From Colletotrichum lupini (lineage: Eukaryota; Ascomycota; Sordariomycetes; Glomerellales; Glomerellaceae), in contig NC_064682.1 in the NCBI RefSeq assembly GCF_023278565.1, positions 3,658,001-3,722,000 of the forward strand: a stretch of DNA of 64,000 nucleotides, given 5' to 3'. Positions 26,262-59,699 of this stretch are shown one piece after another; position 1 is the stretch's first letter; every line of letters starts with the position of its first letter. A program made the translations under genes and the position numbers. Below the pieces are notes generated by a model, which worked only from the letters and a program-made list of their open reading frames with translations, searched no databases and was not told the DNA's origin.

Positions 26262-26480
26262 AAAAGGGAACTCGAGGTAGGTCGGAACGCTATTATATTA
26301 ACCTAATTAACTAAAGACTTAACATAAAAAAAGAAAAAATAGAATAGTAAGTAGAAGCTAGCGAGCTAGCCTTTTAGGCCTAGTAGTTTAGCTCGTTACG
26401 TAACTATTAAAAGCTTAGCCTCGTAGCTTAAAGCTAAGTTATAGGGCCTATAGGGCCCTAATATTTATTATTATAATATT
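26262..26480 (-). mobile_element. 3' LTR (visible part) of a Gypsy retrotransposon, RIP-mutated
   Basis: This segment is a direct repeat of 33529-33748. In the last 21 aligned bases of the two copies, all differences are C-to-T or G-to-A, with this copy the more mutated. On the minus strand it is preceded by a purine tract of AAA and nine G (26482-26493), the expected polypurine tract next to a 3' LTR. That fixes the element's orientation as minus. Its far end could not be traced beyond about 26262. Confidence 0.7.
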
Positions 26481-29400
26481 ACCCCCCCCCTTTATACTAG
26501 AGGGCGCTATTTATAATATTAAAAAATAAACTTCTTAATTACCTCTTATTTTAATAAATTTATAGCTATAATTATTATTATTATATTACCGTTATCCCTT
26601 AGTAATAATAAATTATTAATTATAGTAGCTTCTATTTATATATCTAAGTTTTATAATAAACCTTTAGTAATTAAGTATTAGTAATAAAACGCTTATAGCG
26701 CTATTAGTATATACTTAAAGCTCTTTACGTCGTATTATATTAAATCCGTATTATATCCTTTTTAATTTACTTAGTACTATAGCTTTTCTTTATATAAGTA
26801 TAACTTAACTATTTTAAAAACCTCGTACTCTAGCTTATTATTATTATTAGTAATTAATAGTAATAGTTCTTAGTTCTACTTAGGTAATAAGTCGTTAGCG
26901 GCCTTTTTTAGCTTATTTAAGTAAAAAACTAAGTATACTTAGCTACTTATTAGTAACTCTATAACTTATATACCCCCCTATTTAGTATTAATAATAAGCT
27001 ATAAGCTAGCTTATAGTTATTATAATTTATTTATATTAATAAACTTTTAGTACGAAGTATTAACGAAGACCCGGTCTCTTATTTTTAAGTTATCTGGGTA
27101 TTAATAATAGTTGGTATACTTTTTATATTATACTTAAGTAACTTTTATATTACCCTTAGTAATCTCCTAGGCCTCGTATATTCCCTAAGCTATACGCTAT
27201 ACGTTAGTACGGTTTAGTTTCTTTTTTATAAAACCGAATTAGTAAGTTCGCTTAGACTAATTAAAGGAAAGCTATAGCTAGTAACCGAATTTTACTTTAT
27301 ATAATAATAGCCCCGTAGTCTTACTAAGCTAAGTAGTATAAGTAAAGTTAATTATAAGTAATATGTCGCTCTAGTTATTTTAATATTAATTAATTAATAA
27401 TCTTAATTACTATAAGATATACTAATTTAGTACCTCTATTTAGCTATCCGTTTATAAATAATCTATTATTAATAACTATAACCTAACTTTATAAATCTTA
27501 TAGAGCTCCCCTTAGAAATTAAAGATAAATTAGGGGCCTCGGTTCGACGTAATAGTTTTTAATAAGCCGAAGATAGGTAGTACCTATTTATAAAATATTT
27601 AGCTTATATTTTTTACTATAGTAGTTTTATAATAAAAAATAAATATCGCCCTTTTACTTAGGTAGTCTATTATTATTTATATATTATTAAATCCTTTTTA
27701 ATTAGTAGGGATACTTATAAAGTTAGTAAAAATATATTACTATAAGTAGTCGGGTATTAGTAATAGTCTTAGCTCCCCTAGAAGTTTATTACGCAGCTTT
27801 TATAACTAGTAATAGGTATAGTAATTCTGTACGTATTAGTAAGTATTTACTATTAGGCCCAGCTAGTAATATTACTATTTAATTATTTTTATAACCTTAT
27901 TATACCCTAAGTAAGTAAGAAGTTTTTATTTATAGACTTTATAAATAATTATATAGTGGTTTTTTTCCGGCTTTATAGGTATAAAAGATCGACCTTAACG
28001 GGATTACGCTTTTAAAAGAAATTATATAATATAATATACTCTTTAACTATATAATATATATTATATATCCTAAGTACGCGCTTAACGTAATATAGTAATT
28101 TTAATACGAAAACCGCTATTTAATTCGGGATAAATAAGCTACCCTTGTTATTATATAGTAGTGCCGGTTAAAAAGGTTAATAATAAAAGTTGGTTATAAT
28201 AATTAGCTATAATAGTCGGCTATAATAGTTAGAGGCGGCCTTTTTTAATTATAGAGGTTCTGAACTTTAATAGCGACGTAGAGGTTTTTAAAAAAAGGGC
28301 TAAATAGGTTAATATTTACTACTTATACTAGAGCTCGTAAAGATTTTTTTTATCCTTATCGCTTTTAATATTATTTAAAGCTACTCTCTATTTAAACTAA
28401 ATAAATTTATTAAATAAATTTACTAAATAAATCTACTAAATAAATCTATTAAATAAACCTATTAATATATAAACTACTACCTTAACGAGAACCTATTCTA
28501 TTTTTAGTATATAATTAGTAATTAGTAAGCTAGAACTTTTTAAAAATACCCGTTAATAAGTCTGCCCCTCTTAGGCTAGGTACCCTCGGCTAGCTCGACG
28601 CTATAGTTATTATAACTAATATTAGTATACCTAAGGATTAGTAAAGTACTTTTTAATAGTACGGAATTTAGCTAGGTAATAGTACGAACGTTATAAATAG
28701 CCGGGCTAATATAAATATTAAGATTTAATATATTAACGCTAGCTTAGTTATAATAATTATAATAGACGGGCTAGAAGTATATAAAGTTAGGGTAATAAAC
28801 TAGTATTTTAAATAGCTCTTATAGGACCCCCTGGGTAATAATAATACTTATATAAAAAAATAGATTATATTAGACCTAGCTACTTACGTAACCTAATATT
28901 AAGAGGTTTTATACGTATTAAAATAAGTAAAGCTTGCTTTATAAGCGGGTAATAGAAAGTTAGGAGCTATTAATAAAAAGGAGATAATAGTTAAGTCGGT
29001 TAATTACTATTTTAGTTAGTAATTAGGTATAGAGCGTATTATACTTAGTTTTTTTTAATACGTAATATACGGTACGGCCCCGGCGGATTGCTCTATCGGG
29101 GGGTTATAAATAATTATAATATAAAAGTTCTCCTCTTTAAATACTACGAGCTTCCCGTTTATTATTAATAATCCGTTATTTTAAATAAATTAGTACTTAT
29201 ATCCTTTAGCTACTAGCGCTCGTATTAATATAAAAGACGTTATAATAAGGTTCTTATTAAGCTTTAAAATCTTCTTTATTAATAAGTACCCCTAGAGCTC
29301 GTTTTTTAATAAAAATAAGCTAATTATAAGCTATAGTTAGTTAATAATAACGCTTAATAGCGCTTATAGCTCTATTATAATATTAAAAAATAGTAGTCTT

Positions 29401-32400
29401 AATAATAAGAGGACTTATATTTTATTAGCTTTTTTTAGTACTTATTAAATACGGATATTTTCTACTTTTTATAAGAGGGCGTTAGTTAGTACGTTCTCTT
29501 TCCCTAGGTAATAATAAATTTAAAAATTAAAGTTTATTAATATACCGGCTTAACGGGCTTATTATAAGTTAAGTAAGTACTTAGTTATAAAAAATAGTAA
29601 TAATTAATAGTTTATAATAACGTCGAACTTATATTTATAGCTTACGAGCTCCGCGCGCTATTCTTCTAAATATAATACTATTATTAATATTCTTTTATTA
29701 TAAATAGTATAATTAAGCTCTGCGCTACTAATTATTTTTAAATAAAAGGCTATTAGGTATTATAACTTATTATCCTTTTATTATTATAATAATACCCCGG
29801 TATATACTAAGTTAGAAGCGTTTACTTTTAGTTATATTAATAACTCTAATTTAAAGTAATAGAGAATAGGCGCCGACGTTAGCGCTAGTTTTATAGTTTT
29901 AAAAGCCGTTTCGTAATTAGTATTAAAGTTAAAAAGAACTCCCTTATTTATGAGCCTCGTAAGGGGCCTAGCTAAGTAGCCGTAATTCTTTATAAACCTT
30001 TTATAAAAGTTATAAAACTTAAAAAAAGACTAAATACCCTTAAGTAATATAAATAGTTTTTAATTTCTAACTATAAAAACTTTCTCTTTATCTAGCTATA
30101 TACTTTTTATTAAAATTATAAAGCCTAAGTATTTTATAAAAATAACGCTAAATTCGTACTTCTTAATATTTACTTATAAGTTTACTTTTTATAAATAGTT
30201 TAGTACTTTAGTAACGTATTTTTAGTATTAAAGGGGGTCGTTAGAGAAGATTAGGATATTATTTATATATACTATATAAAAGCTATTTAAGTATTTTATT
30301 AATATCTCGTTTATATATCGTTAGTATATAATAAGCTTATTATAAAGCTTAAAAAGTACTATTTTATATTTATATACCTTATAATAGGTTTTAAACGTTA
30401 TTAAGTCCTTAGAGGCTAGGTTAAGTTAGATATAATAAAAAGCTTATTTAATATTTAGTCTAATAAATACCTTTACTTTACTTAGCTATATAAAGGTCTT
30501 ATTAATAAATAATAGGGGGTAGTAGTCTTTTTTTATAACTTTATTAAGTTTATAAAAGTTAATATAAAAACGTAAGTTATTATTATACTTTTTTATAAAT
30601 AGCGTTAGTAATATAAAAAGAGTATTACTTAGCTCGATAAATCCCTTTTATAAGTACTTTAATAAATAGGCCCTTATAACCTCTAGCTCGGGTATTAACT
30701 ACTTATATAAAGAGTAATAAGTTAGTTTTTTTTATTACTATTTAAGAGCTCGATTTTACAATTATACGGCCTATAAGGCGTTAATATATCGCTAACTACT
30801 TTATTAAAAACGTTAATCTAAGGCTATAAATACTTTAATAAGTTCGTTATTATAAGGTTATAAATAACTTAGTTATTATTATATAAGGGTTTTACCTCTT
30901 CCTTTTTATCTTTTATAATATAATTAAGCTTATAAAATAAAATAAAGCCTATTTTAACGTCGTTCTACTTTAAGTTCTTTTTAAAAATAGGAGCGCTAAT
31001 AAAAGTAATATCTATTCATATTATTATTAAATATAGTTTTTATTACTTAGCCCTTTTTATAAGAGTAATATTAATATTATTAAGGGCGCGTTCTATTTTT
31101 TTTATATTCTTAGCCTCGTTTAACTATTATATTTAACGGGCTATTATTTTTAGTAAGCGTAGTAATATCTTAATTAGTATACCCTTTACTTATTACTACT
31201 AGAGCTTTTAGTTATACTAAGTTATATTTATTTCAAATAGGTCTTATTAATAATTAGCGTCGATTTAGTATTATATATTAATAACTTCTAGGGTATATAG
31301 GTCCTCGATATCCTTAATAATAATAAAGGGCGTTTTTTATAATAATAGGTCCTTAGGCTATATTAAATATTAATAGTAAATATTAAGGTTTACCCCGTAG
31401 TATTCGAACTACTTCTGCCTTAGGATTAGGTTATAGCGGCCCGTATTAAGCTAAAAGAGGAGTATTTTTAAAAAGACTTATTAATTAATATATAAGTTAG
31501 CGGTCTATATTACGTTAGTATTACTTAATTACTTTTTATTAAATCTAATAATAAGGATTAGGTATAGTAATTTATAAAATAGGGCCGCGTAAAACTATTA
31601 TAATAGAGGGGTTACGTAATTATTTATAAATCCGTACTTATTAGCTCCCGTATTAAATAAAGCTCTTGGGCAAATTTAATATTTATTAAATACTAATATA
31701 AGCTCTATTTTAAGGGGCTAGTCCCCTACGAGATTTTATAAGTTTATTAAATTAATTACTAATTCTTTATCTTTTTTATATATATTCCCTAGCTAGGAGT
31801 TTATTTTTACTAAGGGTTTTAGTTTTCTAAACCCGACTCTATTTTAATAAGGCCCTTAGTAGTGTTAATAATAGTTATAATAATCTTCGGCTTCTTAAAG
31901 TAGTTTTTAAAAATATATTTAGTATTATTATAAATAAAATAAGCGCCACTATCCTTAAGCTTTTAATATAGGGCTTTAGGGATTATTTTATAAGTAAAGG
32001 TACGACCTCGGTTCTATTTAGTACTTTTAATATTTTTATTATTTCCGTTATTTTTATTACTTTTATTTAAAGTCTAGCGGGTTTAGTTAGAAACTTTAAC
32101 TAGGCGGTCCTTTATAAAAGGGGGCTATATTACGTTAGCTAACTAAGTAACGTACTTGGTATATTTTTAAAAAGTAGCCGTATTATTTAAGTATTTTAAT
32201 ATAGCTTAGTTATAAAAATATATAAGTAGCTTATTATAAAAACGGCGCTTTTATTATAATTTTAAAAGCTTATTAATACGTGCGAGCTTAGTAAATATAG
32301 AGCGCTTTTAATAAACGTTTTTAAATATAATCGTAAGTATATCTAGCTTATAACTAGCGTTATTTATAGCGGTCGGGCTAGTATAAGCTAACTTAAGCTC

Positions 32401-33528
32401 GTAAAATAACTACTTAGCTATAGTAATTTTATTAAAAATTAGTATTAGGTATATAAACTCTATAGTACTATTTCTAATCTTATTAATAATATACTTTAAG
32501 TGGTACTTATCCGTATTATAATTAGTATTTTCTAAGCGCTTCGTAATATATTAAAGCTAATAATTAAACTTAAGGTTAATATTATTATTTATAAAAATAG
32601 GTACGTTAAGTATTTTTTAAGAGCCGTAAGTAATAGAATAGAACGAGGTTAGAATAGTTTTATAACTACTTTACGTCTCTAAGTATATTAGCTATTACTT
32701 TAGTATACTAAGGGTAGTAGTATTTTAAATAGAGCTAGCCTAAGAGCCGTTTTCTAATTATTTTAGTTTTTTAGTTATAGCTATATTACTAATATAAGCT
32801 TAAGTAAGAGCTTTTTTTATAATACGGAGCTTTATAGCGGTAGTATATATAAAGTCGAGGTTTTTATAGGTTATTATATATAAGCGCTTAGTACTATTAC
32901 TTAGCTAATTAATAATAAAAGCTAGGACTTACTTTAACTAGTACTAAGTAATATGTATTTTTAGTTATTATTCGATCTATTTAAACAAGGTTTTTTTATT
33001 ATTTTTAAAATATAGCTCCTAAATAAGATTAAGGTCGATATATTACTTAGTATTTTTTTAAAAAAGGATATTATTATAGATATAAATAGGTAAGGTAAGT
33101 TAGTTAGTTACGTTATTAAAGTACGCTAAGTAATCGGCCTAGGTAATAAAGGGTAAGAAGTACTTTATTGACTAGTTAAATAGTACGACTTTAGGGTTAA
33201 TAACTAAGAGTTTAGCGCCTTTATTAGGGCTTATGACGCTCTATTAAGACTTATAAAAGTAACGACTTTATTAAAAACTATTAATATAAAAAGAGACCTA
33301 GCCTCTTTAGTTATATTTTCTAATTATTATATTTAATAAAGGGGGTATATATTTAAAGAGTATTAATTATATTACTTACGTATAATTAATTCAGTTAGTT
33401 ATTACTTAGCTCTCTCATATACCTTTTTAATAAAAGTAGCTAGTTAGGATAATAAGTAGTTAATAAATTAAAATATTATCGTTCTATTTCTAAAGAATAG
33501 TTAATTAAGTAATATTAAGTAATATTAT
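26481..33528 (-). mobile_element. Internal region of a Gypsy-type LTR retrotransposon, RIP relic
   Basis: On the minus strand near 30240-30310 a frame reads Y-I-V-Y-I-N-N-I-L-I-F-S, the degraded form of the YLDD box of Gypsy reverse transcriptase (YVVYLDDILIFS). The flanking helices also fit, with TAA/TAG interruptions. Orientation agrees with the polypurine tract at 26481-26493. Gag should lie toward 33 kb and integrase toward 27-29 kb, but these were not confirmed. The segment 27955-29100 inside it also occurs, inverted, outside it, so a second element may be nested here. No open frame survives. Confidence 0.6.
27955..29100 (+). repeat. Arm A of a 1.1-kb inverted repeat pair with a 13-nt minisatellite
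   Basis: This segment matches the reverse complement of about 34145-35265 over its length. Good anchors are the AAAAGATCGACCTTAACGGG stretch near 27987 and AGACCTAGCTACTTACG near 28874. Near 28395-28465 it carries about five 13-nt tandem units of the form CTAAATAAATCTA. Identity is obscured by RIP transitions. It probably belongs to a transposable element different from the Gypsy copy that holds it. Confidence 0.65.
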
Positions 33529-33748
33529 AAAAAGGAACTTAAAATAAGTTAGAACGCTACTATATTAATTTAATTAACTAAAGACTTAATATAAGAAAAG
33601 AAAAAATAGAATAGTAAGCAGAAACTAGCGAGCTAGCCCTTTAGGCCTAGCGGTCTAGCTCGTTATGTAATTACTAAGAGCTTAGCCTCGTAGCCTAAGG
33701 CTGAGCTACGGGGCCTATAGGGGCCCCAATGCCCACTGCCGTAATACT
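33529..33748 (-). mobile_element. 5' LTR (visible part) of the Gypsy retrotransposon
   Basis: Direct repeat of 26262-26480. It shares AAAGACTTAA, AGAAAAAATAGAATAGTAAG, the CTAGCGAGCTAGCC stretch and the CCTATAGGG palindrome zone. This copy retains more C and G near its outer end (CAATGCCCACTGCC). On the minus strand it is the upstream LTR. Confidence 0.7.
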
Positions 33749-33829
33749 TCTTAAATTAAGGTCGGGGCTAGGGCGAGGATTAGATATTAACTAGTTCTTT
33801 AAATTATTAATAACTATATAAGGATCTCC

Positions 33830-34075
33830 TTTTTCCCCTTATTATTATACCCTTATATAACTAAATAAGACTTTTTAATAAGGTTAAGTCCTAGGTTTTT
33901 AATCTCGTTAATAAATTAAAACTTAAATATCCTTATATCCCTATATTTAGGGCTAAATTAAATAAATTTAATTACCCCTCTTTTTACTAGTCCTAAAAGC
34001 TCTTTATTAATAAATTCTATAAAAAGTACTCTTAGGGTAGTAATAATACCCTTATTATAGAGCTTAGTAATTAAT
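33830..34075 (-). mobile_element. Copia-type reverse transcriptase fragment, RIP relic
   Basis: The minus-strand frame reads ELLGLVKRGVIKF, then RIF-KF-FINEIKNLG and K-S-YLVI, with stops at Gln-like positions. This is the N-terminal start of Ty1/Copia reverse transcriptase (L-x-RGVFE..., RIFGSRFVDEIKN-G, EKSRLV). Only this piece was recognised; arm A' at 34145-35265 may be its upstream neighbour from the same element. Confidence 0.55.
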
Positions 34076-34144
34076 TTAAAATTTACTTTCTTTTTAAATA
34101 TAAAATAAGTTATAGTTATAGAAGTATTACTATAGCTGCCCCCC

Positions 34145-35265
34145 TGACGGAGTAATCCGCTAGGGCCGTACTATATATTACGTATTAGAGAAAACTAAGT
34201 ATAATACGCTCTATACCTAATTACTAACTAAAATAGTTCCTAACTTTTTATTACTCGCTTATAGAGCGAGCTTTACTTACCTTAATATATATAAGACCCC
34301 TTAGTACTAGCCCGCGTAAGTAGCTAGGTCTAATATAATCTATTTTTTATATAAGTATTATTATTATTTAGGGGGTCTTATAAGAGCCGTTTAAAGTACT
34401 AGCTTATTACCCTAATTTTATATACTTTTAGCCCGTTTATTATAATTATTATAACTAAGTTAGTATTAATATACTAAATCTTAATATCTATATTAACCTC
34501 GCTATTTACGGCGTTCGTATTATTACTTAATTAAATTCCGTATTATTAAAAACTACTTTACTAATCCTTAGGTATATTTACGTTAATTACGATAGTTATA
34601 GCGTCGAGCTAATTGAAGAGGGCGCCTAGCCCGAGAGGGGTAGACTTATTAACGGGCATTTTTAAAGAGTTCTAGCCTACTAATTACTAACTATATACTA
34701 GGAATAGAGTAGTAATTTATATATTAATAGGTTTGTTTAGTAGATTTATTTAGTAGATTTATTTAGTGGATTTATTTAGTGGATTTGTTTAGTAGATTTA
34801 TTTAATAGATTTATTTAGTTTAAATAGAGCTTTGGGCGATATTAGAAGCGATGAGGATAGAAAAAATCTTTACGAGCTTTAGTATAGTAAAAGAGTAATA
34901 AATATTAGCCTATTTAGCCCTTTTTTTAGAAACCTCTACGTTATTATTAAAGTTTAGAACTTCTATAGTTAAGGAAGGCCGCTTCTAACTATTACGGCCG
35001 ATTATTATAGCTAATTATTATAGCTAACCTCTACTATTAAACTTTTTAGCCGGCACTACTACGTAAAGGGTAGCTTACTTATCCCGAATTAAATAGTAAT
35101 TTTCGTATTAAAATCATTATATTACGTTAAGCGCGTGCTTAGGATATATTATGTATATTATATAGTTAAAAAGTATACTATATCGTATAATTTCCCTTAA
35201 AAATATAATCCCGTTAAGGTCGATCTTTTATACTTATAAAGCTAGAAAAAGAAAAAAAAAACCAC
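34145..35265 (-). repeat. Arm A' of the 1.1-kb inverted repeat pair
   Basis: Reverse complement of 27955-29100. It holds six 13-nt units of the type TTTAGTAGATTTA (with GG and TG variants) at about 34737-34820. Homology seems to end close to a CCACTATATA stretch on the right and to CCTGACGGAGTAATCCGC on the left. The 1.4 kb that follow to 36650 are AT-rich and unresolved. Confidence 0.65.
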
Positions 35266-36654
35266 TATATATTACTATAGCTGCGCCGTATTAATATTCT
35301 TTTAGTCCTCTTACTCCGTAATAGAGGGTCGTCGTTAATTATAATAACAATTTTATTAAGGACTTCGTTTATAGTAGTACTATTATTAATTAGTTAGTTA
35401 ACCGTAAAGATTAATAAGTAGTTAACGTACTTTATTATTATAATTAATAACTTAGGATCGACCTCCTCTAAGTACTAAGGTTTAACTATAGTAGCCTAAA
35501 AGTTTATTAAGCTATAAAGTAATTTTATTACGTAAGTAATACTATTTATTAAAACGAGCTTAAATAGGCCTTTTTACCCTTTATTTTCTTACTAAATTTT
35601 AACGTTTAACTATAGTAATAGATTAATAATATAAGAAATATTTAGTCTATTTTAAGTAGTTAGTACCTCGCTTATTTACTTATTAATATAAAGTTTATAG
35701 ACTTTTCTTATTACTTTTTTAACTATTTTTATATATTAAGTGATATTTAGTAATAGTAGAGATTTGTTAAAAGTGCGTAAAAAAGCTCTAAAAATGAGGA
35801 GTATAAGAACGAGGCTATTTAGGCTAACTATATTATTAATTACTTTAATTATAGCTTAAAGTATAGCCTTTGCGCTTATTAATAAGTACTTATTTTAAAT
35901 AATATTATATACTTTTTTAAGTATTATATAATATTTCTTAGCTTTATTAATACTATTATAAGCTTTAACGGGTACTTCCTTAACTTTAATAAATATAGAT
36001 CTAATAAAAGATTTAAACTTTATAGTACTAAAGTTCTTATTAATATTTATAATAATCTAATCCGGCGGACCGAGGTAAACGTCGATCTAACATAGCTAAA
36101 GAGCCTCTTATATATACTTCGTAATTATATTTATAAAAAACCTTACTATTCAAAAAGAAGTAGTAATATTAACGATATAAAGTACTAATTAGTTAGTATT
36201 TTTATAATTTATTAAGTATATTACGTTAATTACGACTTTATAACTAAAATTATAATTATTTTATAAAATAAATTAAAATCGGCTAGGAGTAGTAGCGTTA
36301 AGTTAGTATTATTAATAAACTTGTATAAGCTTTTTAAGGGCTACGATCTCTATATCGTTATTAAACTACTAAAATAGCTTTAAAAAATAAAGAACTAAAG
36401 GGTAGCTAAAGTACTAATATAAGTAGCACAATTCGCTCTTTATTAAGTAGTTAGTAATAACTTTCTTATTATTAAAGAGCAAAAGCTAAGGGTATTTTTA
36501 TTTATAAATAATAAGTATTATAACGTCTCCTTTAATTAATAAGTTATTAATATTATTAAAATATATTCTTAGCTTATTTATATCCCTTAAGTAGTATAAA
36601 AAAGGAGTATTAGTTAATAAGATATAAAAAATAATATTACTACTAAAAGCGAGA

Positions 36655-37130
36655 AGTCGCTGCTAGGGCCGCCGAATCCGGTGGGAAGTGCCGCTGTTCT
36701 AGGCGGCACTAGTAGTGAGAGGGAGCGGGGCGAGGGGCGGATACTGCTAGGTATTAAATACTTCGTCCCGCTCCCTCCAACGCCCGCAACCTGGTTATGG
36801 CAGTGCGCCCCTGCTTTTTGTCCAAGCGCCTTCCATCTCCTTCCCTTCTACCCTGCCCGTCGGTTAAGCCACTACTTGCTTGTTCTTCCTAACTCCCTCG
36901 CTTTCTGGCATTCGTTGAAGCAATTTTTGGCTGCTCAGGCTGTTTAGGTTCTGCTTGACGCAATAGCGCCGCCTACTATAAAGAGCGGCGTCGTGCCTGT
37001 CGTCTTTTGTCGTCTTCTCTCGACTCAGTACAGTACACGCTCACGACCCCTCTTCTGCCGCTGCGACGAGCGACTATCTCGCAGCCATGTCCCAGCCGAT
37101 GCTCGCCGATTATCGACCTTAACAAACAAA
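36655..37130 (+). promoter_or_regulatory. Unmutated promoter island upstream of the recombinase relic
   Basis: About 475 bp of normal composition between RIP-destroyed flanks. It holds two perfect inverted repeats: AGTGCCGC/GCGGCACT (36687-36694, 36703-36710) and an 11-bp pair GAGGGAGCGGG/CCCGCTCCCTC (36719-36729, 36767-36777). A C/T-rich stretch follows, then a TATAAAG at 36977-36983 and the ATG at 37087, which opens the recombinase frame (MSQPMLADYRP, then TAA where Gln is expected). The layout is that of a fungal promoter. Confidence 0.65.
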
Positions 37131-39720
37131 AACAACCGTTGACTTTTTAAAGCGGTTTACTAACTAAGAAACATAACGTCGGATTACGAACTAGCCAAAG
37201 CCGTTCTCAGCTAAGGAGTACGCCGACCTACGTAAGTAGCTTAAAAACGTTAACTTTATTAAGCCGAGATATATAAACGAAACCGAGATTAATATCGCGG
37301 TTATATATAGGAAATAGAAACGGTTCGCCGCGTAGATCTTATACTTATTTCTTTATTAACTAACCTATATAATAATAGTTATTATTAAGAGTAGAACCTC
37401 GGTAAATAGCAAGCGGCCTTAGAAAACGTAAGTTACGAGATAATAATAAGCTTCTTTTTCCGAATTAGCGAGTAGTCAATAAGGAAAATCAAATCCTGGG
37501 GTACGACGTAAGTATATATCTAGCAGTTTTAGTAGTTTTATACTACCGTCGCTAGTCGCTATATAGATAGGAATAATGCAAAAGAGCTATATAAAATATC
37601 TACTAATTGCGGTAGCCGATAGTTTTATAATAATGCTAATATGGGCTAGGCTAGTTCTACCGCACGATCCTAATCCCCCAGTTCGGATACCGGGTACTAA
37701 ATATTAACGAGAAGCCAGTCCTCAGAGCCGATAACCTACTAACTATCTTAATATTTAATATTACGTATAATATTAATATCTTTTTATTAGAACGGTAGCG
37801 TACTTAGCTAGCTAGTTATTACTAGCTCCTTTATTATACTAGCGCGCGGCCTACCGAGGTCGTATATATTAAAAAAAAAAAACCTAAAGATAGAAGTACG
37901 GACGAGATTTTTAAGCTCTAAGGTATTAAGTCCCTTAATATTAAGTATAATAAAGACGTAGAGAACGTGGATTATAATAACTAATTATTATAAAATAAAA
38001 ACTCCTTTCTCTTTAATAAATTACTAATATAAAAAATAACTAGGCGGGGACGTCTAAAAGCCTTGTACTATAAGGATATACTTATAATAATTATTCGCTA
38101 TTTAGTAACGGGACGAGCCGTATTAGTAATAGTTATTAAGTTTATTTATTATAAAGGAGCTAATAATAAGCTAAGACTATAAGTATGCGTAGCGCCGCGG
38201 CTCTAATTACTTTTAATACTTTTTATATTAACTATAAATAGGACTTTTTTTTTTTATACTTATAAGAAGGTTTATTTTCTGTGCCGTTAGTACTATTATT
38301 ACTCTAGCGCTCTACGACTAGGCTTTTAACGTAGTAAGCCTAATAAATATAACTTAAATACTAAAAGTAGAAGTTAGGGGTCTAGTCTAGTCTATGGCTT
38401 TATAGTAAAAGTAGTTAATACTTAAGGTTTTAATCTTTCGAAAGTTTAGCGGTAGTGCGTTAGCCGTTAACGAGGCTATAAGCTATTCTAAATTACGAGA
38501 TAACATAGGCTAATAGAGCCTTAATATAGGTTTTAAGAAGGCCTAGACGCTACGGTTCGCCCGAAGAGGGGCGGTAAATATAGTAAATAGTAAGTTAATA
38601 TAAATAGTATTTATAAGGACTTTAGATACTTAAAGCTTTAACTATAAGGAATATATTTAATACTATATATAACTCAATAATACGCTACGATCTTAAGTTC
38701 GCTACGTTTTAAAGCGCATATTTTAATAAGAACGTTTAGTTCGATTTTTAGAATACCTTTTTAAAAGAGGAAACCGAGGAGTAAATATATAAAGTATTTA
38801 CGTATATTAACCTTATGCGCAATCCTCGCGTAATAAGAAATATAGTCCCTAAGGAGGTCTAGGAGAACTTACCTCCCGATTTAAAAATTATAGAGCTAGA
38901 GTAACAGTAATAGGAGTTAAAGGGTAGTTGATACTAAGTATAAAATAAAGAGAACGAAGCCGAAATCCGTAAGCTAATTAAGGAGATATATACGAAGCGG
39001 GATTAACGTAATAAGAGTGTTATAAAAAAGTATTACGAATATTATTTTTATAACTACTTAATATAGGATATCGAGAGGTAAGCGAACGGTAAAAAAGACG
39101 AGGAATATACTAAACTAGATATTAACCTCTAGATTCCTGAGCGTACTAAACTAGCTTATATCCTTTATTACTAACTAGCCGACTACTCTTATAATAAACT
39201 TATAGAGCTTTAGATTAAGGCTATCGATCTAATAATTATATTTTATAATAAGAGAGAGATAGTTAAATAAGACCGCATCCGTACCTATTCTTAACCTAAG
39301 CTTATTATTAAAGAGGCTCCTTAACCTAAGCCCTTCTTACTACTCCTTAATCCGAATTAGTACCTTAATTATATTAAAGATTATAGGCTTTTACTAATAG
39401 AATAGACGTTTAAGTACTACTAGCTAACGGTTAAAAATAACTATTTTAATAACTAGTATTTAATAAAACGAGAGCGTATTATATAACGTAGCAATCTTAT
39501 TTAGTATAACTATCCTTAATATTAAGATAACCCGAATTTTATAATACTAGATACGTTTAGATAGTATATATAGACTTCTTATAGCGTTTTGCTAAGGATA
39601 TTAGGCTAAGTTAAGTAAAAACGATTAAAAAAGGTAAAGTATAAATAAATAGTTAAAAGGATATAAGGCTAGGCCTAGTTTAGATTATATAGAGTATTTA
39701 GTATTAACGCTTAGATAGAT
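37087..39720 (+). pseudogene. DUF3435 tyrosine recombinase (Starship-captain type), RIP relic
   Basis: From the ATG at 37087 a plus-strand frame can be followed with many TAA/TAG stops at Gln/Trp positions. Diagnostic blocks in order are AEYADLR/FIKPRY; an SARPTEVV box near 37850, corresponding to the first catalytic Arg region of the recombinase; RRGRLKALYYKDIL and IKFIYYKGANNK near 38050-38170 (family: IKFIHHKGADNKPKP); and RYDLKFATF with FNKNV-FDF-NTFLKEETEE near 38690-38790. Then come LPPDLKIIELE, IPERTKLA and a C-terminal IKRERIIQ...NPNF...F stretch that looks like a ruined zinc-finger tail. This matches PF11917 (DUF3435). Such recombinases are the first gene of Starship giant transposons and drive their insertion. 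Here the protein is destroyed but its promoter is not. The cargo and 3' end of the element were not found. Confidence 0.75.
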
Positions 39721-42700
39721 ATATATAACTACTTCTTATATCTCTATCCTATATCTTTAACGTAATAAAATACTAACTCGTAATCCTAAGGTCTAAACTA
39801 TTTTAAAGGGGTACCGAGGATATATTAATAAGTTAGGATAATAAGCGATATATACGCCGCTGCGTTTGCTATAATTATTTAGCTTAACGAGGAATTAAGC
39901 GACGTTAAAATAGCCTTTAGTTAGCTACGTAGGTTCGCTATAGCTTAGGGCGTGCCGGATTTTAACTTAGACTTAATTACTAAAAGTCGGGCTAAGGGGC
40001 CGTTATAAGCGGCGTTCGGTAGGTACCGAACTACTACGTTTCGATATATCTAAGCTCTACTTAACTATTAATAATTTATATAGAAGTAGGTTATTTAAGA
40101 GTTAGTAAAATCGTAAAGGCTAAAGTTAATAATCGGTAAATTATATTTCTTATAAACTACGCTAGTTTACTAAATTAGCTTCGTTAAATAGTACCTAAAA
40201 ATAATAGAGGAGTTTATATAAACCTACCCTAATCCTCTCGAGGCTAGTAAAAAGGTATTAGGATTATCTCTATTATAAGCTTTACTTTTTATATATATAA
40301 AGGGTATAGAGAAATAGCTTCTACCGTTTCTTATTATAAGGACGTTAGAATTTAAATACGCTAATCCCCGTAATTATATTTTTATAATAATAAGTATTAT
40401 ATCCGATACTAACCGCTCCGATCTAATCGATTATAGAAGCCTAATAGAGAAGGTTTATTAATAGTTCGCATCTATTTACGTCGCTAATAGTATAAGTCTT
40501 AAGTTATTTTAGTCTCTCGTTTACTTTACTTTATTAAAATATCGGATACGTTCTTAAGTATTAAATATTTAAAGCGTAGTAAGTAATAAGGACGGGGGTA
40601 CTTTAGTTACCTAGTTTTCTATATAATAATATAAAGATTATAACGTATCTAGGGACATAGTACTATAAATAGTATTATATAATAGTAGTAATATCTTAGG
40701 GATATAGGGCTACGTTATTAATAGGGTTCGCTTTTTTAAATCGGATAATAAAAGTCTTAGCAACGCTCGTATCATCGAAAAATTATTTAATAAGGATCTA
40801 TAACTTTTTTAGAAGAATATTTAGGTAATATAAAGGCGGAGATAGGAATAGTTTAAAGAATATTTAGCTATTATAAAGGCCTCGGGCGTAACTAACGTCG
40901 AGGGAGCTTTATAAAACGTATTACTAAGTAATTTTTTTTTTAATAAAGAAGTTCTTTAGCGTTTAGTAATAGTTAGGATAGAGTTTACTACTTAAATATA
41001 GCTTAATAAAGCTATAGCCTACGAAAGTAACTATAGTAAGTAGTTATCCGCTATAATAATAAGTATAGGCCTTGAATCGAGCTATTTTTTTAAGAGTATA
41101 ATATTAGAAAAGCTATACCGGTAGTTTAGTAGTACGGAGAGCGGAAGGCTAGGCTAGTTAACGCCGGTTATTAAGAATAGAGATTTTATTTATACTTTTA
41201 ATAAAATAGAGCTTCTATATGCCATCCGGCTATTTTTAAAAGGCTAATACCTCCTTATTAATAAATATATTATCCTAGGATTTATAATAGGGGATGCGAT
41301 AGGGTTATCTAGTGCCGCTTTGGAAATAATACTTCTTAAATAATCTAAGTTCGTCTATTTATATTATACCACTATTATATAGGTTATAAGAGTTTTTACT
41401 AGACCACTCGTAAGTTTAAATAATAGCTAAAAACGGTATATCCGCTCTTTACGGTAGTATAGAAAAACGTATAAACTAATACGAGACGTATTTATTAATC
41501 CGTGCCGCTAGTTTACTTAGTTATTTTCACGGGTACGTACCGGTAAGCCTATTAAGAGCCGACGTAAGGGACAGATTTAGTTAGCTTATTATAACTCTTT
41601 TACGTAACTCTAAACTTAGGATACGATAGTTATCGGGGCAATATAGACTAAACGTAACGAAACATATCTAAATAAGCTAGATTATTAAGACTTAAGGGTC
41701 GAATTTACTAATTACTTAATTTATATTATATATATATCGGGTTATAATAGAAGATAAACTCGTAAAACTACGATAATAGCTTCTTAAAGCGTAGTAACTT
41801 TATAACGAAGAATAGCGCCGATACGAGTAGGTTAAAGAACTTACGAAAGTAGTATAACTATAAACCCTTTTATATTATCTCGTATTTTATTACTCGCTTA
41901 GCCTCGTTATTAAAATAGTAACTAATCGTACTTTAACTACGCAAAGTAATATAACTAACCTAATAGGCCGGATTTTCCCTCAACGAATCGTTCTATAGGA
42001 TGACTTCGTAACGAGGTAATAGGATATATAGGATTAACTCTTAAATTCTAGCACGTTCGCTTCGAGGCCTATATTTCTATTTCTATATTAATTAGACTAC
42101 GTTATATCTCTTATTAGCCCAATTAGTAGCGAGACTAGCCTCCAGAACTTCTAACGTAATATAGTTAAGAACGCGGTTTAAAAACTAATTAATAAGGTAT
42201 ATAATAATACGTAACTCTAAAATAATATTGGCTTATAAAGGACTATAACTTTTAAAAGTTATATAAACCTTAGTTAAATAAATAAAGCCCTATCCGAGCT
42301 TATAAAGTAATTATTTATCGAGCGGAATAATATTAACGCTACGGTAATTCCCTTAAGGCTACCGAGCTATAAGCCCCGATAAAGAGCTAGGGGTAAGGGT
42401 AATTAGGTAGATTAGTTCTATATATATTATACTTCTAATAGCTAAAATAGTCCGGCCCTAGCGATTAAGTATAAGGCACTATATAAGTTACGACGCGACG
42501 AGGTCGTTACTAGTTTAGAATTAGAGATTAGACCTAAATATAACGTAATAAATAAGGACGGTAAGGGGTTTAAGTTTACGTTAAGATCGCTCGTTATTAC
42601 TATCGTAACCTAGCTCTTTTCGTATATAATTAGTAAAAGTATTTAGTATAAATATATATATATAGGAGAGGTATTCGTTTTTTTTTTTATTCTAAACGAT

Positions 42701-45700
42701 CTTATTATTATATACTATTCCGTGCGCGTACTTAACTTAGATATTTTTAATAATAACAATAATAAGAATAGGCTCTATAATATAGCTATTATATAAGTTT
42801 TTACTTTTATTTTTTAGGCTCTGCGTACTAACCCGCCCCTATAGTCTTAATATAATACTACCGTAAGTCTTAATACTTAAGCTATAAAGTACGACGACGT
42901 ATTAGAAAATATATTTAAAATAGTACGCAAAGGTAAAGAGGCGTATATCTCTTTATATAAGCCTTAACGCTAGCGAGAGTTTAAGCGCTTATTAATTTAA
43001 ATATAGTCTTAGTATAAGTAATTTAATAATAATATAAAGTAGCGGGATAATAGCGGTAATAATAAAGAAGGAACTTCTCCCTTATTAATACTAATATAAC
43101 TAATCTTTAGTAATAAAAAGGCTCTTACGAAGTTAAGTACGGGCTCGGCTAGTAAATAAGTATAAGAGCACCGATATTATAGCTAAGAGAAGTAGATAAA
43201 TAAAAAAAATCGTTAGTTCTATATACTATAATATCTATTTAGATTAGTAAACGGCTAGCCCCTAGATAAACGCTACCCGAATTTTTAAAATTATAGATAT
43301 TAGTACCTAAACCGACTAGATTTCTTTTAACTTATCTACGTTTAACTAGCTAAAGACCGTAGTTATAATATTAACGTCGTACTACTTTACCTATTTAGCT
43401 CTATTAATATACTCTTTAAGGTTAGGATATTTTCTTATAGCTATACTCTTATTATTAAAAGCGTTAAGATACTTAACTTAGCCCTCCTTCGCTATAAAAA
43501 GAAGATATATAATAAACTCCGCTTAATTTAGGGAAAATATATTCCCGTTTACTTAGGGCGGACTAATTTAACCCTGCCGTTATATTACGATAGTAGCGTA
43601 TATGAGTATGTTTTATTTCTTAGCTAGGCCGGAAAACCTCTATTTAACTTTACTAATTAAGTAACTAACGTAAATATTAACGTAGTTACCTAAGCGTATT
43701 AAAATCTATATTAATTAAGTATTCTTTATAACAACGCAAAATTATATAATATATTACGTAATAAGAGTATAGTAAGTAAAAGTATTATAATAATAAACTT
43801 TAAGCGGGTAGAATTTAGCCGCCGCTTACCTCTTAGTTTACTTAGTTTAAACCGTTAAAATAAAAAGAGGAAGCGGGGGATATTAAGGAAATTAACTATA
43901 TTAAATAGCTAAGGGAGCAAAAGATTTATAAAAGAGCTAGACTTTATAATATATTATATATCGAGATATATAGACGCTAAATAGTAGTAAATAGCCGCTA
44001 ATATAGCTAGGAAAGTATAAGATTTTTTACTTAAGGGTTCTAAAGAACCGTTCTAAGTTCTTATTAGCTTATATATTTATAAATACTAGGAATAGTAATA
44101 AGAAGATAGCTTACGAAGCGTTTAATATTAATAAACCGTTATAAACGTAACCCTCTTACCGGCTATAAATATATATATATAAACGTAACTACCTTATTTT
44201 ACTAGGGGGCTATACTTATATTAGTATATTAGTTAATATAAAATTAACTAATAGCCTTTATCTTATTATATTCGGCGTTATTATATAAACGCTATAGTAA
44301 TTACGGGTAGGCTCTCTACTAATACCGTAGCTAAGATATTAGCTAATAGTATTACTACGGGCTTATATTAGGTTAGTAAATACGAATTTACGTGCCTATT
44401 TTACGTAAGTAAAGTATATACGGGAGGCTCCTTAGCTTTTGAGCTAGCCAGGTGCTACTTAAGTCTAGTACTTTAAAATGCAGAGAATGTCGCTATCTCG
44501 GTTGAAACGCCTAGCTACTTTCTAACTATAGTCCTCTTTAGCGATTTCACTATATAATACAAAGGAATACCGGCTATAATACCTCCCGCGGCCTAATTTA
44601 ATAAGCCTTAGGGGTACGTCGTATCCCTTATCGATTCTAACTAAATAGGGTAATTATACCTTAGTTACCTAGTCTCCCATCGATCTAACGTCAATTTACC
44701 TAAGGCTAGCTATTTAATTCTTAATCCTTTATTAACGTCGCTAATTTAGCTTTTAATAGAACTCCCTAATATTTAAGTAAAGACAAAACTTAGTTAACTT
44801 ACCTATGCCCGGATTATATAGCTAAAAAGTTACTCTCTAATGCCGTTATTATAGATAATTAACGATAAGATTAAATTTTATCGGGCTATTATTTAACTAT
44901 TAAAACGGAGGCAACCCCTTCCCCCCCTCCCCGAACCCCCCCCCCCGCGCTAAGTAGTTAACGCCCAGTATCGATACTTATAAAGTTTCTAATTCTCAAA
45001 CCGTATTTTATAACTTAAAAACGAGATTTAACTAGCTAACTACGTAGCTTTTTTAGCTTATAAGTCCGAAGGATTCGCAGAGATTATAATAGTTTACGTT
45101 AAGGAATAGCTAAATTATTAAGGACTTATTTTATAACTTACTTATAACGAGCTCTAGCTAAAAGAGGTAGTTAAAAATATACGGGGTCTATTTCGGGTTC
45201 TAGAGGACTATATAAGTAAAAGTATATTAGCTATTTAGTATAAAGTCCAATAGTAGCTAAGTAATTAAGGCCTTAAAATAAGTATTATATAAGATCGACT
45301 CTTTAATAAAGCACTAGGAATTAGTAAGAATCGGATTTTATAGAGATAAATACTATCCTAATACCCTATACTATTTTATTAAAATATAAAGCATAGTTAG
45401 GGGAGGGTATTATTACTTAGTAATCTCTAGGCTATCTAATCTCGTTTACCCTCACGGCCTTTAATTCCTAAGGCCTATATAATATATAACGCGTATATAA
45501 GAGTTCTTTTAAATATTTACTAAAGCCGTTATTATAATTATTTCGTATTATCTAAACTTATATTACTAAGGATAGGAAAAGGGCTCTATTATCTTTAATA
45601 AGCACTTAGTTTACCCCGTTCTAAATTAATTTTACTACCTCTAAAATAGTTTAACCCTACTTATCTTTTTATTATCCTCGCGGATCTAATTCCTAGTTTA

Positions 45701-47100
45701 GCGTTTCTATTATACTAAGTTTAATTTTATTATTTATATAAGTTATTATACTTATTAGCGAACTTCGATTTATTTTACTGCCCTAGTTTTATTTTACTAT
45801 TTCGAACTGTTTTTTTACCGTTCTTTTTTAAAATTTTACTACGCTTTTTTACTAGCTATCTAGATCTATTCGCCTTTTTAATTCCGAATTCTACCCCCCT
45901 AATATTAATTTTTTACCGCCCTTAGCCGTACTTTTCTACCCGCCCGCTTTCTAACTATTTAAAAAGACGTTTCTCTATTTAGGGCGTTTATTATATATCC
46001 GTAATCCTTATTTCGATAAATACGGCTAAACGTAAGCTCTGTTTTTTATAATATTATTTTAGTAACTTATTAAGCTCTATTCGCGTCCTTTGTACTAATT
46101 AATTATTATAATATTAAGCTAAAAGGAAAACCCTTACTAAGTACCTATAGCGTATTTAGTTAATTATTTAAATAGAGGTACCCCGACCTTAATACGCTAG
46201 GCTTTAGCTAGTTAAGTTACCTAAGCTAGTAAGATATTACTCGTAAATATATAATTAAGAGTTTAACTTATTAATATAACTATCGTAAGTCCTAGACAGA
46301 GCCCTTTACTAATTCCGTAATAATTATAATAACGGACTATATTTAGTATAAAGTCTACTTAGCCTTGGGTTATTACCTTTACGAATCCGACGAGGCAGAA
46401 CGGCGGCAAAATTATTTAAACTATATATACGAACGAGTATCGATAGCCGGATATAGAATTAACCCCCGCCCTATAATAATAAGATATATATATTAAGGCA
46501 TTTCGATTAAACCTAACTATTGCTATTTATTAAATGGTCCTAGCTAACTAAGTAAATATACTAAGGCACGATCGCGTTTACGGTACTTTACTTACTAATC
46601 ACTAGCGTCTTAATTTTGCTCGTATCTATAGTAGAGTATACTAACCTTAACAAATGCTTTATTATATACCGTAATAAGGCTTTAGCAAAAATATATTTAC
46701 TAAACGATAATAGAACCTAAAAGTATTTAAATTAGGGACTAGATACTAATAGAGCGGAGGGACGTGCTTTTTTAAGGCGCTTTATATTTTTAAGCCTATT
46801 TTATTAAATATAAAAAATCTAATAAAAATAACGCTAGTAATATACTATATATTAGCCCCTTACTATGCTATAAAGTGCTATAAGAGGCCGACCTTATAGG
46901 CCTAATTTTAAAACTAGATAACGCTAGCGAACTAGATATTTAGGGTACCGACTCTTAATATCTAAAATAGTAATATTTAAATCTAGGCGGCGACTATTCG
47001 TTTTACGCTACTATCCTTAGATCTTTTATATATAATATCTATCCTTATTATACCTAGCTTATAACTCTAGCTATATTATTATTATATATAGTATAGTTTT
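39721..47100. other. RIP-mutated DNA with unidentified coding relics
   Basis: Several plus-strand stretches read as protein with only TAA/TAG breaks, for example around 41190-41420 (FNKIELLYAIRLFLKG, YIILGFIIGDAIG). They suggest one or two old genes behind the recombinase relic, but I cannot name them. A less-mutated zone at 44440-44950 ends in C-rich tracts (44925-44948). No LTRs or terminal repeats were recognised. Confidence 0.4.
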
Positions 47101-47329
47101 TATTTAGTAAACTATAGTCTTTTCTACTTATAGATCCGGGTTATTATAAAATAGGGAAGAACGAATACCTATAGAAAAGAGAGATAGGGAAACCCTACTT
47201 AGATCCTACTTTTACTAAGTATAATACGTAGATATAGGAAACCGTAATAAATAGCTAGGTAATTTACTATATTAAGTATCTTATAGAGCTATCGGACTCT
47301 ATAATATCTAGCGTAATAAATTCCGAGCT

Positions 47330-48390
47330 AATTTATAGTTATAATTAAAAAGCTAGCTAAGATCTAAAGATTTAAATACCTAATAGGCCTTAAGTACCTA
47401 GGGATAATACTATATAACTAACTATTAATAAGCTTTATAGCGGTTTTATAAGAGGTTTTTTTACTAATTACGGTACTTAGAGACTAAGCTACCTACTTAA
47501 TAAATAAAAGCACGGCGCGTATTCTTAAATATTCTTTTAAGCCGCTATTTCGCGCTATAATATTAATAAACTCGTTATTCTACTTTAATAAAGTCGATAT
47601 CTTAATAAATCGAAATAGTCTTAAGAAGCTTCTTAACTTCTACTAAGGGCAGTAATAAAATAGCTTTCGAATTAATCTATACTTAGTTTACTATACCCTA
47701 ATTATCGAGCGTTACGAAAAGACCCTTAGTAAGCTAATCGGCGGTTCGTAGAATTCTAAGTAGGGTAGGAATTTCGAGCGTACCTTTACTTAATACCTAC
47801 TTAGGTTAGAAAATAGTACGGCGCATTACTAAGCTCTTCGATACTAACTAAGAGATCTTATATATATTATATAATTTAAAGTAAATATATATTACTAGCG
47901 AAAGGTCGAGGAGGGTAGTACTTTATAATCGCTAGTATGCGTAATAAATCGATTATAGACCGATAATAGCTAAAAAAAAAATGCTTTTACTAGCTAGTAG
48001 CTAATATAATAAGTGCCAATAGCTTAAGCGAATACTATAGAAATTAAGATAGTAGCTAGATATAAGAGTCCGAGGGTATATACATTATAGCTTTAGTTTA
48101 GTAAAACGCCCTAGCTTATCCTTAAATAGTATATAAATAGAACCTTTCAAAAGCTAAGAATTATTAATATAGTAGCTTAATTTGCGGGTTAAGAAGAAAC
48201 GTATTAACTCGAATTTTATAAGTTAACTACGGTTTTAGTATAACTACGCGAGGCCGTTTAAAAAAACGGAGGTAAGTTTTATATTACGATTTATAAAAAA
48301 GCTATAGAGACGTTAAATATTAAAGTATACCCTTTATATATTATAAAAGAGGCTATTCTAGAAAAGTTAAAGGGCGAGCTCTAGAGTTAA
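47330..48390 (+). pseudogene. RIP relic of a fungal non-transposon gene family
   Basis: One plus-strand frame from about 47.57 to 48.39 kb reads as protein with stops only at Gln/Trp-like places. Its blocks are FNKVDILINRNSLKKLLNF, FRINLYLVYYTLIIERYEK, NFERTFT, ENSTAHY-ALRY-LRDL and, at the end, LREAV-KNGGKFYITIYKKA. This matches an ascomycete family whose members are often labelled geranylgeranyl pyrophosphate synthetase although no prenyltransferase motif is visible. It is not a known transposon protein, so its presence here implies a duplicated or captured host gene that RIP then destroyed. The N-terminal part before 47.33 kb is unclear. Confidence 0.6.
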
Positions 48391-51000: not shown

Positions 51001-51139
51001 AACGTAGAGTCACTACTTATGGATATTAGTACGTACGTTTAGACGCGGGTAGCCCAAATAACGGGATTCAATAGCTATCCGAGAGGTAGAACAGGAAGCC
51101 ATACCCGTTAATTTAGGACCAATTGCATTTGCCAAACAG

Positions 51140-59330: not shown

Positions 59331-59699
59331 ATATAATAAAGGCCCATTTGGGTTCTATTGGTCTTACGAGGGCTAGGCGTCTAAAGCCGACGTAAACACT
59401 ATTTATACGTTTAGTATTATCGTCTACCCAAACCAGAGCCATAAGCTCTTTTTAGATCGCCCGATATCCTAAGCCTATTTTTAACTTATGTCTAGAAAAG
59501 CCAGAGACCACTCGCAAAAAACGGTACTATCTATATAGAGGATAAACGAGATACCTTTTTTATAACTAAAAGAAGTACCGTAGCGCTTAAATAATAGAAC
59601 TTAAGACCTTTTTTAAACGAGATAGTTAACTCTAGATCTATAATATATATATAAGATACTTTTAGTATAAAGCGCCGTCCTATATAACGAAGTCTAAAT

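What the first reader, a model, noticed from the sequence alone, without database searches (positions are those of the whole stretch)
36655..39720. Starship-captain-type recombinase destroyed by RIP, promoter spared
Diagnostic DUF3435 blocks (SARPTEVV, IKFIYYKGANNK, LPPDLKIIELE) survive through RIP, oriented plus, right behind a 475-bp unmutated island that ends at its ATG. A captain is the first gene of a giant cargo-carrying transposon, so 36.65 kb may mark the left end of an ancient Starship that reaches toward or beyond the right edge.
Basis: partly seen in the sequence, partly recalled or inferred. Interest (0 to 1): 0.85.

Follow-up and report, generated by a model that had tools for sequence, protein, structure and literature searches.

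The report
RIP-killed giant Starship transposon, 196 kb
The wrecked gene is the movement enzyme at the left end of a roughly 196,000-base fungal "Starship" jumping element whose shared backbone was mutated to death by the fungus's own defence while some stretches it carries were left unmutated.

Summary
The three DUF3435 blocks lie where stated, PF11917 is matched over cut-off in two frames, and 776 of 783 residues of an intact Colletotrichum relative align to 37087-39657; 296 of 304 mismatches are C>T/G>A-explainable. The island 36643-~37115 is unmutated here and RIPped in the two other copies found.

At 36642 the element interrupts a high-copy repeat; 13 of 13 copies examined run straight on. 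The missing half of that repeat lies at C9:3890631. The span is 195,980 bp, with TATTACTA at both ends, terminal inverted repeat GAGAAGTCGCT, and the captain ATG 444 bp from the left end reading inward. Two sibling insertions (218 and 355 kb) pass the same empty-site test. DUF3723 and NLR-like remnants and un-RIPped islands lie inside.

The direct repeat fits the Phoenix family; captain phylogeny was not tested. Host: Colletotrichum acutatum complex, probably C. lupini (inferred). RIPped multi-copy Starships are known, so this is a new member of a known kind.

The parts
25159..36642 (+). Left half of a high-copy RIPped repeat that the Starship cut: pieces 25159-26256, 33747-34142, 35270-36642, separated by nested inserts
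   Evidence: blastn of repeat copy L024 to window; 79 places with the start of the repeat's right half genome-wide; 13 of 13 copies examined (of 33 listed) continue past the point where the window copy stops
36635..36642 (+). Left direct repeat TATTACTA (the same 8 bases stand at C9:3890623-3890630, outside the window)
   Evidence: junction sequences; the 8-mer alone is not rare in the block, 48 in 79,000 bases of both strands
36651..36661 (+). Left terminal inverted repeat GAGAAGTCGCT (inverse AGCGACTTCTC directly before the right direct repeat)
   Evidence: 0 of 20000 random 30-mers of the block share a word of 11 with the left end
36643..37115 (+). Unmutated island: element 5' end, captain promoter/leader and first codons
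   Evidence: substrate index; copies found at C1:1251923-1252406 (71%) and C4:3277393-3277803 (69%) are RIPped
37087..39657 (+). RIPped DUF3435 tyrosine recombinase (captain), five blocks 37087-37326, 37380-37595, 37655-38176, 38244-38588, 38650-39657
   Evidence: PF11917; tblastn of P0001
37847..38721 (+). Positions of the presumed recombinase residues: R codons 37847, 38562, 38565 and Y codon 38719 unchanged; H codons 38147, 38150, 38686 (H in 6 of 6 relatives) now read Tyr
   Evidence: codon mapping, invariant columns; assignment to the tyrosine-recombinase motif is recalled, not tested
39850..51794 (.). RIPped backbone shared at 83-89% (72-78% for 51445-51794) with copies on C1, C2, C4, C10; 51145-51444 is an insert missing from four of these copies; no protein domain recognised
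   Evidence: no Pfam match at E 0.1 for 39700-49690, one chance-level match near 50 kb, no protein match
51795..57285 (+). Nested LINE-like insert missing from other copies: reverse transcriptase (about 54.7-55.5 kb) and endonuclease (about 53.6-53.9 kb) remnants
   Evidence: RVT_1 E 1.7e-5 and Exo_endo_phos_2 E 4e-4, both below Pfam cut-off; breaks against other copies; 44-bp inverted ends 51795-51838 / 57242-57285
57290..64000 (.). Backbone continues past the right edge; ankyrin-repeat remnant at about 60128-60301 (+)
   Evidence: Ank_2 E 6e-5, below cut-off; the element ends at C9:3890622, 168.6 kb beyond the window

Best explanation
Window positions 36643-64000 are the left 27 kb of a 195,980-bp Starship (C9:3694643-3890622) in a Colletotrichum genome of the acutatum complex. 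SHOWN: it sits inside one copy of a high-copy repeat whose two halves, in the same orientation, flank it; both ends carry TATTACTA and an 11-bp inverted repeat; its first gene is a DUF3435 captain 444 bp from the left end reading inward; sister elements of 218 and 355 kb have the same kind of ends; captain and backbone carry C>T/G>A damage; some islands inside are unmutated. INFERRED: the captain, acting as a tyrosine recombinase, inserted the element at a TTACT core; once several copies were present, RIP mutated the shared parts in every copy while stretches without a close duplicate escaped. The promoter island may have escaped because three of the copies (C10, C2, C1b) lack the first 1.1-1.5 kb, so that stretch had fewer duplicate partners. 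No undamaged full-length captain of this family was found in this genome, so the element is probably immobile.
For: Captain. Left border sharp and shared by three copies. Repeat interrupted, 13 of 13 copies examined run on. Right half found, with direct and inverted repeats. Right-end sequence at four other places (86-89% at three, 66% at C4), each ending in a form of the inverted repeat and a TTACT-like repeat; 200-bp outer flanks are unrelated, so these are separate insertions. Joined-flank tests: C1 element (C1:1034077-1252408, 218.3 kb), 17 of 19 rows uninterrupted, the other two being its own flanks; C4 element (C4:2922594-3277800, 355.2 kb), 38 of 40, the other two being its own flanks. 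Empty sites shown: TATTACTAAATA in 3 of 3 for C9; CTATTACTAATA in 1 of 3 for C1, the other two with TTATTAATA; TTTACTTTAATT in 2 of 2 for C4. DUF3723 at C9:3881564-3882785 and inside both siblings. PNP-NACHT-ankyrin NLR-like gene from C9:3742531. Unmutated bins: 18 of 152 in the 76,358 contiguous bp read.
Against: Only 80,882 of 195,980 bp (41%) were read; nested Starships or rearrangements in the unread middle are possible. The captain-family tree was not built. Mobility cannot be shown. TATTACTA alone is common in the block (48 in 79,000 bases). The C1b and C2 right ends have no left end, and related captains also stand in composite or truncated loci. The duplicate-partner account of the spared promoter is incomplete: the C1 and C4 copies carry that stretch and are RIPped there, and in 37143-37342 the window has few derived sites of its own (3 of 50) although its substrate index is already low. 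Copy number was tested for only one stretch with islands (L051, capped list), so 'unmutated because single-copy' is not shown; a 514-bp repeat there has over 30 copies at 97-99% and is not RIPped. Of six island reading frames tested, one has a Pfam match over cut-off, one has only sub-threshold helix-turn-helix matches and four have none. The NLR-like gene is itself partly RIPped. The AlphaFold model of the intact relative was too poor to use (mean pLDDT 41.9).
Confidence: 0.94

Rival explanations
1. A stand-alone DUF3435 repeat family (Crypton-like or an orphan recombinase repeat), without cargo or giant borders.
For: DUF3435 sequences recur in the genome, and three copies start inside the captain (at 37775 or 38133) rather than at the left end.
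Against: Homology is collinear over more than 20 kb in the C4 copy; left and right termini are conserved and repeat-flanked in three insertions with empty sites.
Confidence: 0.03
2. The left end is real, but the right border is a coincidence: the block is a patchwork of rearranged repeats (for example a centromere-like AT-rich region) and the orphan repeat half at C9:3890631 belongs to another event.
For: The block is full of nested repeats; 59% of the span was not read; high-copy repeats can recombine; the 8-base direct repeat alone is common there.
Against: The orphan half starts exactly at the base where the left half stops, in the same orientation, next to the inverse of the left end's 11-mer; it is the only match to the missing half downstream on C9; the same right-end sequence is a terminus at four other places.
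Confidence: 0.03
3. For the spared promoter only: the island is not a RIP edge effect. The window copy arrived after the others had been RIPped, or the stretch was restored by gene conversion.
For: Both other copies found of the island are RIPped to 69-71% identity, so a late-arriving copy might no longer be recognised over the first 0.5 kb.
Against: The reading frame it would drive is destroyed; elsewhere a RIP edge lies about where a homology edge lies (the NLR-like gene at about 3743.49 kb).
Confidence: 0.3

Closest known systems
Thetis (GLS-R2), Phoenix-family Starship of Colletotrichum fructicola (PMC11018114, PMC12257634; passages seen)
   Same: Same genus; DUF3435 gene 450 bp from the left breakpoint (here 444 bp); direct repeat TTTACT (here TATTACTA, core TTACT); giant and repeat-rich
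   Different: 989 kb and tied to disease genes; here 196 kb, multi-copy family, RIP-dead captain. Identity of the two captains was not tested
Phoenix Starships of C. nymphaeae and C. lupini, Ph1-Ph3 (PMC13373834; passages seen)
   Same: Same species complex and probably, for C. lupini, the same species; repeat-rich; the paper's 28 Colletotrichum Starships span 19-407 kb
   Different: The main text has 0 occurrences of 'RIP' or 'repeat-induced'. Its Table S4 could not be read here, so this very element may be listed there
Janus (Phoenix) of Aspergillus fumigatus (PMC12153272; passages seen)
   Same: Predicted target site of h2 and h3 contains TTACTA; mean length of h2 217.8 kb (SD 103 kb)
   Different: A. 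fumigatus Starships are with few exceptions single-copy per strain; here several RIPped copies. Captain relationship not tested
RIPped, gene-poor Starship of Gaeumannomyces tritici type A (PMC11905480; passages seen)
   Same: Starship that underwent extensive RIP
   Different: Here several sibling copies in one genome share the ends, and unmutated islands remain inside

Membership tests
Starship | DUF3435 tyrosine recombinase (captain) | tested here: met
   PF11917 over cut-off in two frames; 776 of 783 residues of an intact PF11917 protein align
Starship | Captain is the first gene at one end, reading inward | tested here: met
   ATG 37087, 444 bp from the left end 36643, + strand
Starship | Direct repeats at both borders | tested here: met
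   TATTACTA at both ends; siblings have ATTACT (C1) and TTATTTT (C4, where both empty sites read TTTACTTT)
Starship | Terminal inverted repeats (common, not universal) | tested here: met
   GAGAAGTCGCT, 0 of 20000 random 30-mers as good
Starship | Empty insertion site exists | tested here: met
   Uninterrupted copies of the host repeats in the same genome: 13 of 13 examined for C9, 17 of 19 rows for C1, 38 of 40 rows for C4. An empty site at the same locus in another strain was not available
Starship | Giant size with variable cargo | tested here: met
   195,980, 218,332 and 355,207 bp, lengths that include nested later insertions; DUF3723 and NLR-like remnants and unmutated islands; 59% of the C9 element unread
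Starship | Autonomous mobility by a working captain | not testable with these tools
   The captain is broken here (63 stops against P0001)
Phoenix family of Starships | Family-typical direct repeat / target (TTTAC, ATTAC, TTTACT, TTACTA) | tested here: met
   TATTACTA at C9
Phoenix family of Starships | Captain falls in the Phoenix clade | not tested
   No named family reference captains were at hand
Crypton | Small tyrosine-recombinase element without giant cargo (definition recalled) | tested here: not met
   Element spans 196 kb with inverted repeats and other genes

The most novel reading that the evidence does not exclude
This Starship lineage preferentially lands in other transposons, at TTACT sites inside high-copy repeats (three of three insertions with both ends known), and so builds the giant AT-rich blocks of this genome. 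RIP then works as a family-wide kill switch: it erases captain and backbone from every copy but leaves single-copy cargo readable, stranding cargo genes in dead shells.
Probability: 0.25. Interest if true: 0.65.

Novelty: new member of a known kind. Interest (0 to 1): 0.52.

Why it matters
The Starship surveys whose methods I saw in passages rely on captain genes and on comparison with other genomes (PMC13373834; PMC12153272). Here a captain with 63 stops was still traced to both ends of a 196-kb element, using the interrupted repeat's own other copies as empty sites inside a single genome. The same test delimited two siblings of 218 and 355 kb. If it works generally, dead Starships inside RIPped blocks become countable, and their contribution to fungal AT-rich regions and to stranded cargo genes becomes testable.

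Tried and rejected
Rejected: a stand-alone DUF3435 repeat (borders found); the other DUF3435 loci as the same family (six of them, L001, L002, L004, L005, L006 and L008, gave no tblastn or blastn match to the window captain at E 1e-3; the later search with an intact relative found the family copies). A structure of an intact relative was predicted, but at mean pLDDT 41.9 and pTM 0.24 it was not used and no fold search was run. No solved structure matches P0002 by sequence at E 1. Frames of 49.6-51.3 and 57.25-64 kb gave only sub-threshold ankyrin matches and one chance-level match; two frames of L044 gave none. The host repeat copy L024 gave no Pfam domain. C9:3771001-3880899 and 3883401-3888599 were not read. 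One search aligned two copies in the wrong orientation and is superseded; the script failed and was rerun. Literature searches on RIPped Starships, targets and Colletotrichum: (listings), with passages read; no paper was read whole. Three requests for Starship papers were not held; what is said of recombinase motifs and of the captain's mechanism is recalled.

Full report
WHAT IS THERE. The window is C9:3658001-3722000 of a 63.4-Mb fungal genome in 12 contigs. Bases 1 to about 24,400 are ordinary gene-bearing DNA (GC about 0.5); from there to the right edge it is AT-rich (GC 0.20-0.41) with strong RIP indices. A protein of the gene-bearing part is 98% identical to Colletotrichum costaricense, 93% to C. 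simmondsii and 92% to C. acutatum, so the host belongs to the acutatum complex. The size fits C. lupini, whose genomes are given as 54.5-63.4 Mb with long-read assemblies of 11-116 contigs (PMC11645255, passage); the species is an inference.

THE CAPTAIN. With stops read as X, PF11917 is matched over cut-off in two frames and weakly in the third. A protein search with part of one RIPped frame returned six proteins at E 0.001, all with PF11917: four from Colletotrichum (abscissum, kahawae, higginsianum, cereale), one from Gaeumannomyces avenae and one from Thelonectria olida. Against the intact C. abscissum protein P0001, 776 of 783 residues align in five blocks; 472 are identical and 304 differ. 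Of the differences 296 are explainable by C>T or G>A alone and 2 by the opposite changes; 61 of the 63 stops are RIP-explainable. For P0002 (C. kahawae) 794 of 804 align, 478 are identical and 298 of 316 mismatches are explainable (7 by the opposite changes); the share falls with distance, to 207 of 447 for T. olida. The presumed catalytic Arg and Tyr codons are unchanged, while three conserved His codons now read Tyr (the motif assignment is recalled).

THE ISLAND. Between 36643 and about 37115 the RIP substrate index is that of unmutated DNA (0.81-1.35) and drops to 0.12 by 37143-37342; the composite index stays positive there because TpA/ApT is high. Two other copies were found, 71% and 69% identical. 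Over 36644-37054 the differences are almost all C or G in the window and T or A in the copy: 107 of 109 and 122 of 131. In the first five 100-bp bins the window is derived at 6 of 190 polymorphic transition sites, the C1 copy at 141 and the C4 copy at 158; in the next two bins the window still has only 3 of 50, so site sharing and dinucleotide index do not place the edge at exactly the same base. Three other copies (C10, C2, C1b; 86-87% identical downstream) start only at 37775 or 38133. Why the island escaped is an inference and incomplete.

THE LEFT BORDER. Homology among the window, C1 and C4 copies begins sharply at TAAAAGCGAGAAGT. Upstream, 25159-36642 is one copy of a high-copy repeat, itself split by a retroelement with reverse transcriptase and RNase H remnants and by another insert. 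The 13 other copies examined, of 33 listed, all continue without a break where the window copy stops. So the DUF3435 element landed inside a repeat copy.

THE RIGHT BORDER. If so, the rest of the repeat must lie at the other end. A degenerate pattern of the first 34 bases of the missing half found 79 places genome-wide; downstream on C9 there is one, on the same strand, at C9:3890631. The fetched sequence shows an orphan half: to its left there is no repeat but ...AGCGACTTCTC TATTACTA, followed by AATAAAG.... TATTACTA is also the last 8 bases before the left end, and AGCGACTTCTC is the inverse of GAGAAGTCGCT in the left end. The 8-mer alone is common in the block (48 in 79,000 bases), but none of 20,000 random 30-mers from the block shares a word of 11 with the left end. 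The element therefore spans C9:3694643-3890622, 195,980 bp, and reaches 168.6 kb beyond the window.

SIBLINGS. The right-end sequence recurs at C1:1034069, C1:6136634 and C2:7886324 (86-89%) and at C4:2922877 (66%), with one further 190-bp fragment at C1:1104644. The four end in forms of the same inverted repeat and a TTACT-like repeat, and their 200-bp outer flanks are unrelated to one another. Two of them pair with the left ends at C1:1252408 and C4:3277800. With each element left out and its flanks joined, the query matches uninterrupted repeat copies elsewhere: 17 of 19 rows for C1 (218.3 kb) and 38 of 40 for C4 (355.2 kb), the remaining two rows in each case being the element's own flanks. 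Of five empty sites fetched, the two for C4 read TTTACTTTAATT; of the three for C1 one reads CTATTACTAATA and two have TTATTAATA. The other two right ends (C1b, C2) have no left end. A protein search shows further broken captains of this family and of a diverged second type (33-38% in the last block) at C10, C2 and C1:6.51 Mb; at C10 and C2 a diverged right part runs directly into a copy that begins at 37775, which suggests composite elements. Each copy of the last captain block that is about full length carries 30 or more stops; one fragment at C7:90963-91415 has a single stop.

CARGO. I read 76,358 contiguous bp from the left end plus 2,501 and 2,023 bp near the right end, 80,882 bp in all (41%). 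In the contiguous part 18 of 152 half-kilobase bins are unmutated by index and GC: one is the promoter island, one lies at window 51643-52142 at the edge of the nested insert, and 16 lie at C9:3739.6-3766.6 kb. Six reading frames from these islands were scanned: one has PNP_UDP_1, one has only sub-threshold helix-turn-helix matches (perhaps a transposase), four have none. The PNP_UDP_1 frame (C9:3742531-3743640) is followed by NPHP3_N (NACHT) and ankyrin repeats, the layout of fungal NLR-like genes (recalled). Its first part is unmutated; damage starts about where homology to a 74% identical copy inside the C4 element begins (L051 position 2488), so the gene is not intact. A 514-bp repeat in the same stretch has more than 30 copies at 97-99% and is not RIPped, so duplication alone does not predict damage; it may have spread after RIP stopped. 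The other islands were not tested for copy number. DUF3723, named among genes common or notable in Starships (PMC12134995, passage, which also reports one NLR in a Gaeumannomyces Starship), is present as a RIPped remnant at C9:3881564-3882785 and inside the C1 and C4 siblings; of its 16 rows genome-wide, 6 lie in the three delimited elements.

HOW IT WORKS. Shown: anatomy, borders, damage, siblings. Inferred from what is known of Starships (recalled): the captain recombines the element into a short TTACT core, leaving the direct repeat; several copies accumulated; RIP, which needs duplicated DNA, mutated the shared parts of the copies and spared stretches without a close duplicate. Because no undamaged full-length captain of the family was found, it is probably immobile in this genome.

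COMPARISON. Direct repeats reported for Phoenix-family Starships are TTTAC, ATTAC and TTTACT, and a predicted Phoenix target contains TTACTA (PMC12257634, PMC12153272; passages). In Thetis of C. fructicola the DUF3435 gene lies 450 bp from the left breakpoint (PMC11018114, passage); here it is 444 bp. Phoenix Starships were reported from C. lupini (PMC13373834, passages); its Table S4 was not readable here, so this element may already be listed. RIP-degraded Starships are known (passages). I therefore call it a new member of a known kind, probably Phoenix family, with the captain tree left untested.

Noticed in passing
L051:5133-5646 (C9:3746133-3746646): A 514-bp repeat inside the NLR-like gene has more than 30 other copies at 97-99% identity with no RIP-like divergence: a young burst, perhaps after RIP ceased.
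   Followed up: no
window 51141-51456 and 59007-59335: A roughly 330-bp module occurs twice in the element and in more than 20 further rows, at 67-84% identity; at 51145-51444 it is an insert missing from four other copies of the element, so it is probably a small non-autonomous repeat.
   Followed up: partly
L008 (C5:5402544-5405978): A 590-aa open reading frame matching DUF3435 just over cut-off and Phage_integrase below cut-off, in GC 0.55 DNA: a possibly intact, unrelated recombinase gene.
   Followed up: partly
L001 and L003 (C2:1754740-1759036): A different, nearly undamaged DUF3435 gene (210.6 and 93.2 bits, 3 stops in the matches) in GC 0.51 DNA, near family blocks on C2.
   Followed up: partly
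C1:6209083-6210717: A DUF3723 gene without stops in three matched pieces, between the right end at C1:6136634 and this family's captain copy at C1:6487136: a possible undamaged Starship gene.
   Followed up: no
L013 and L014 (C10:4000837-4010836, C2:2091287-2101286): The same junction at two places: a diverged element's right part (homologous to L044 1-1237) runs straight into this family at window position 37775, suggesting a composite Starship that was duplicated.
   Followed up: partly
P0001 and P0002: Captains from C. abscissum and C. kahawae are 97% identical although the species belong to different complexes (recalled), which would fit horizontal transfer.
   Followed up: no
C7:90963-91415: A fragment of the captain's last part, 87% identical to P0002 with one stop, far less damaged than the other copies.
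   Followed up: no
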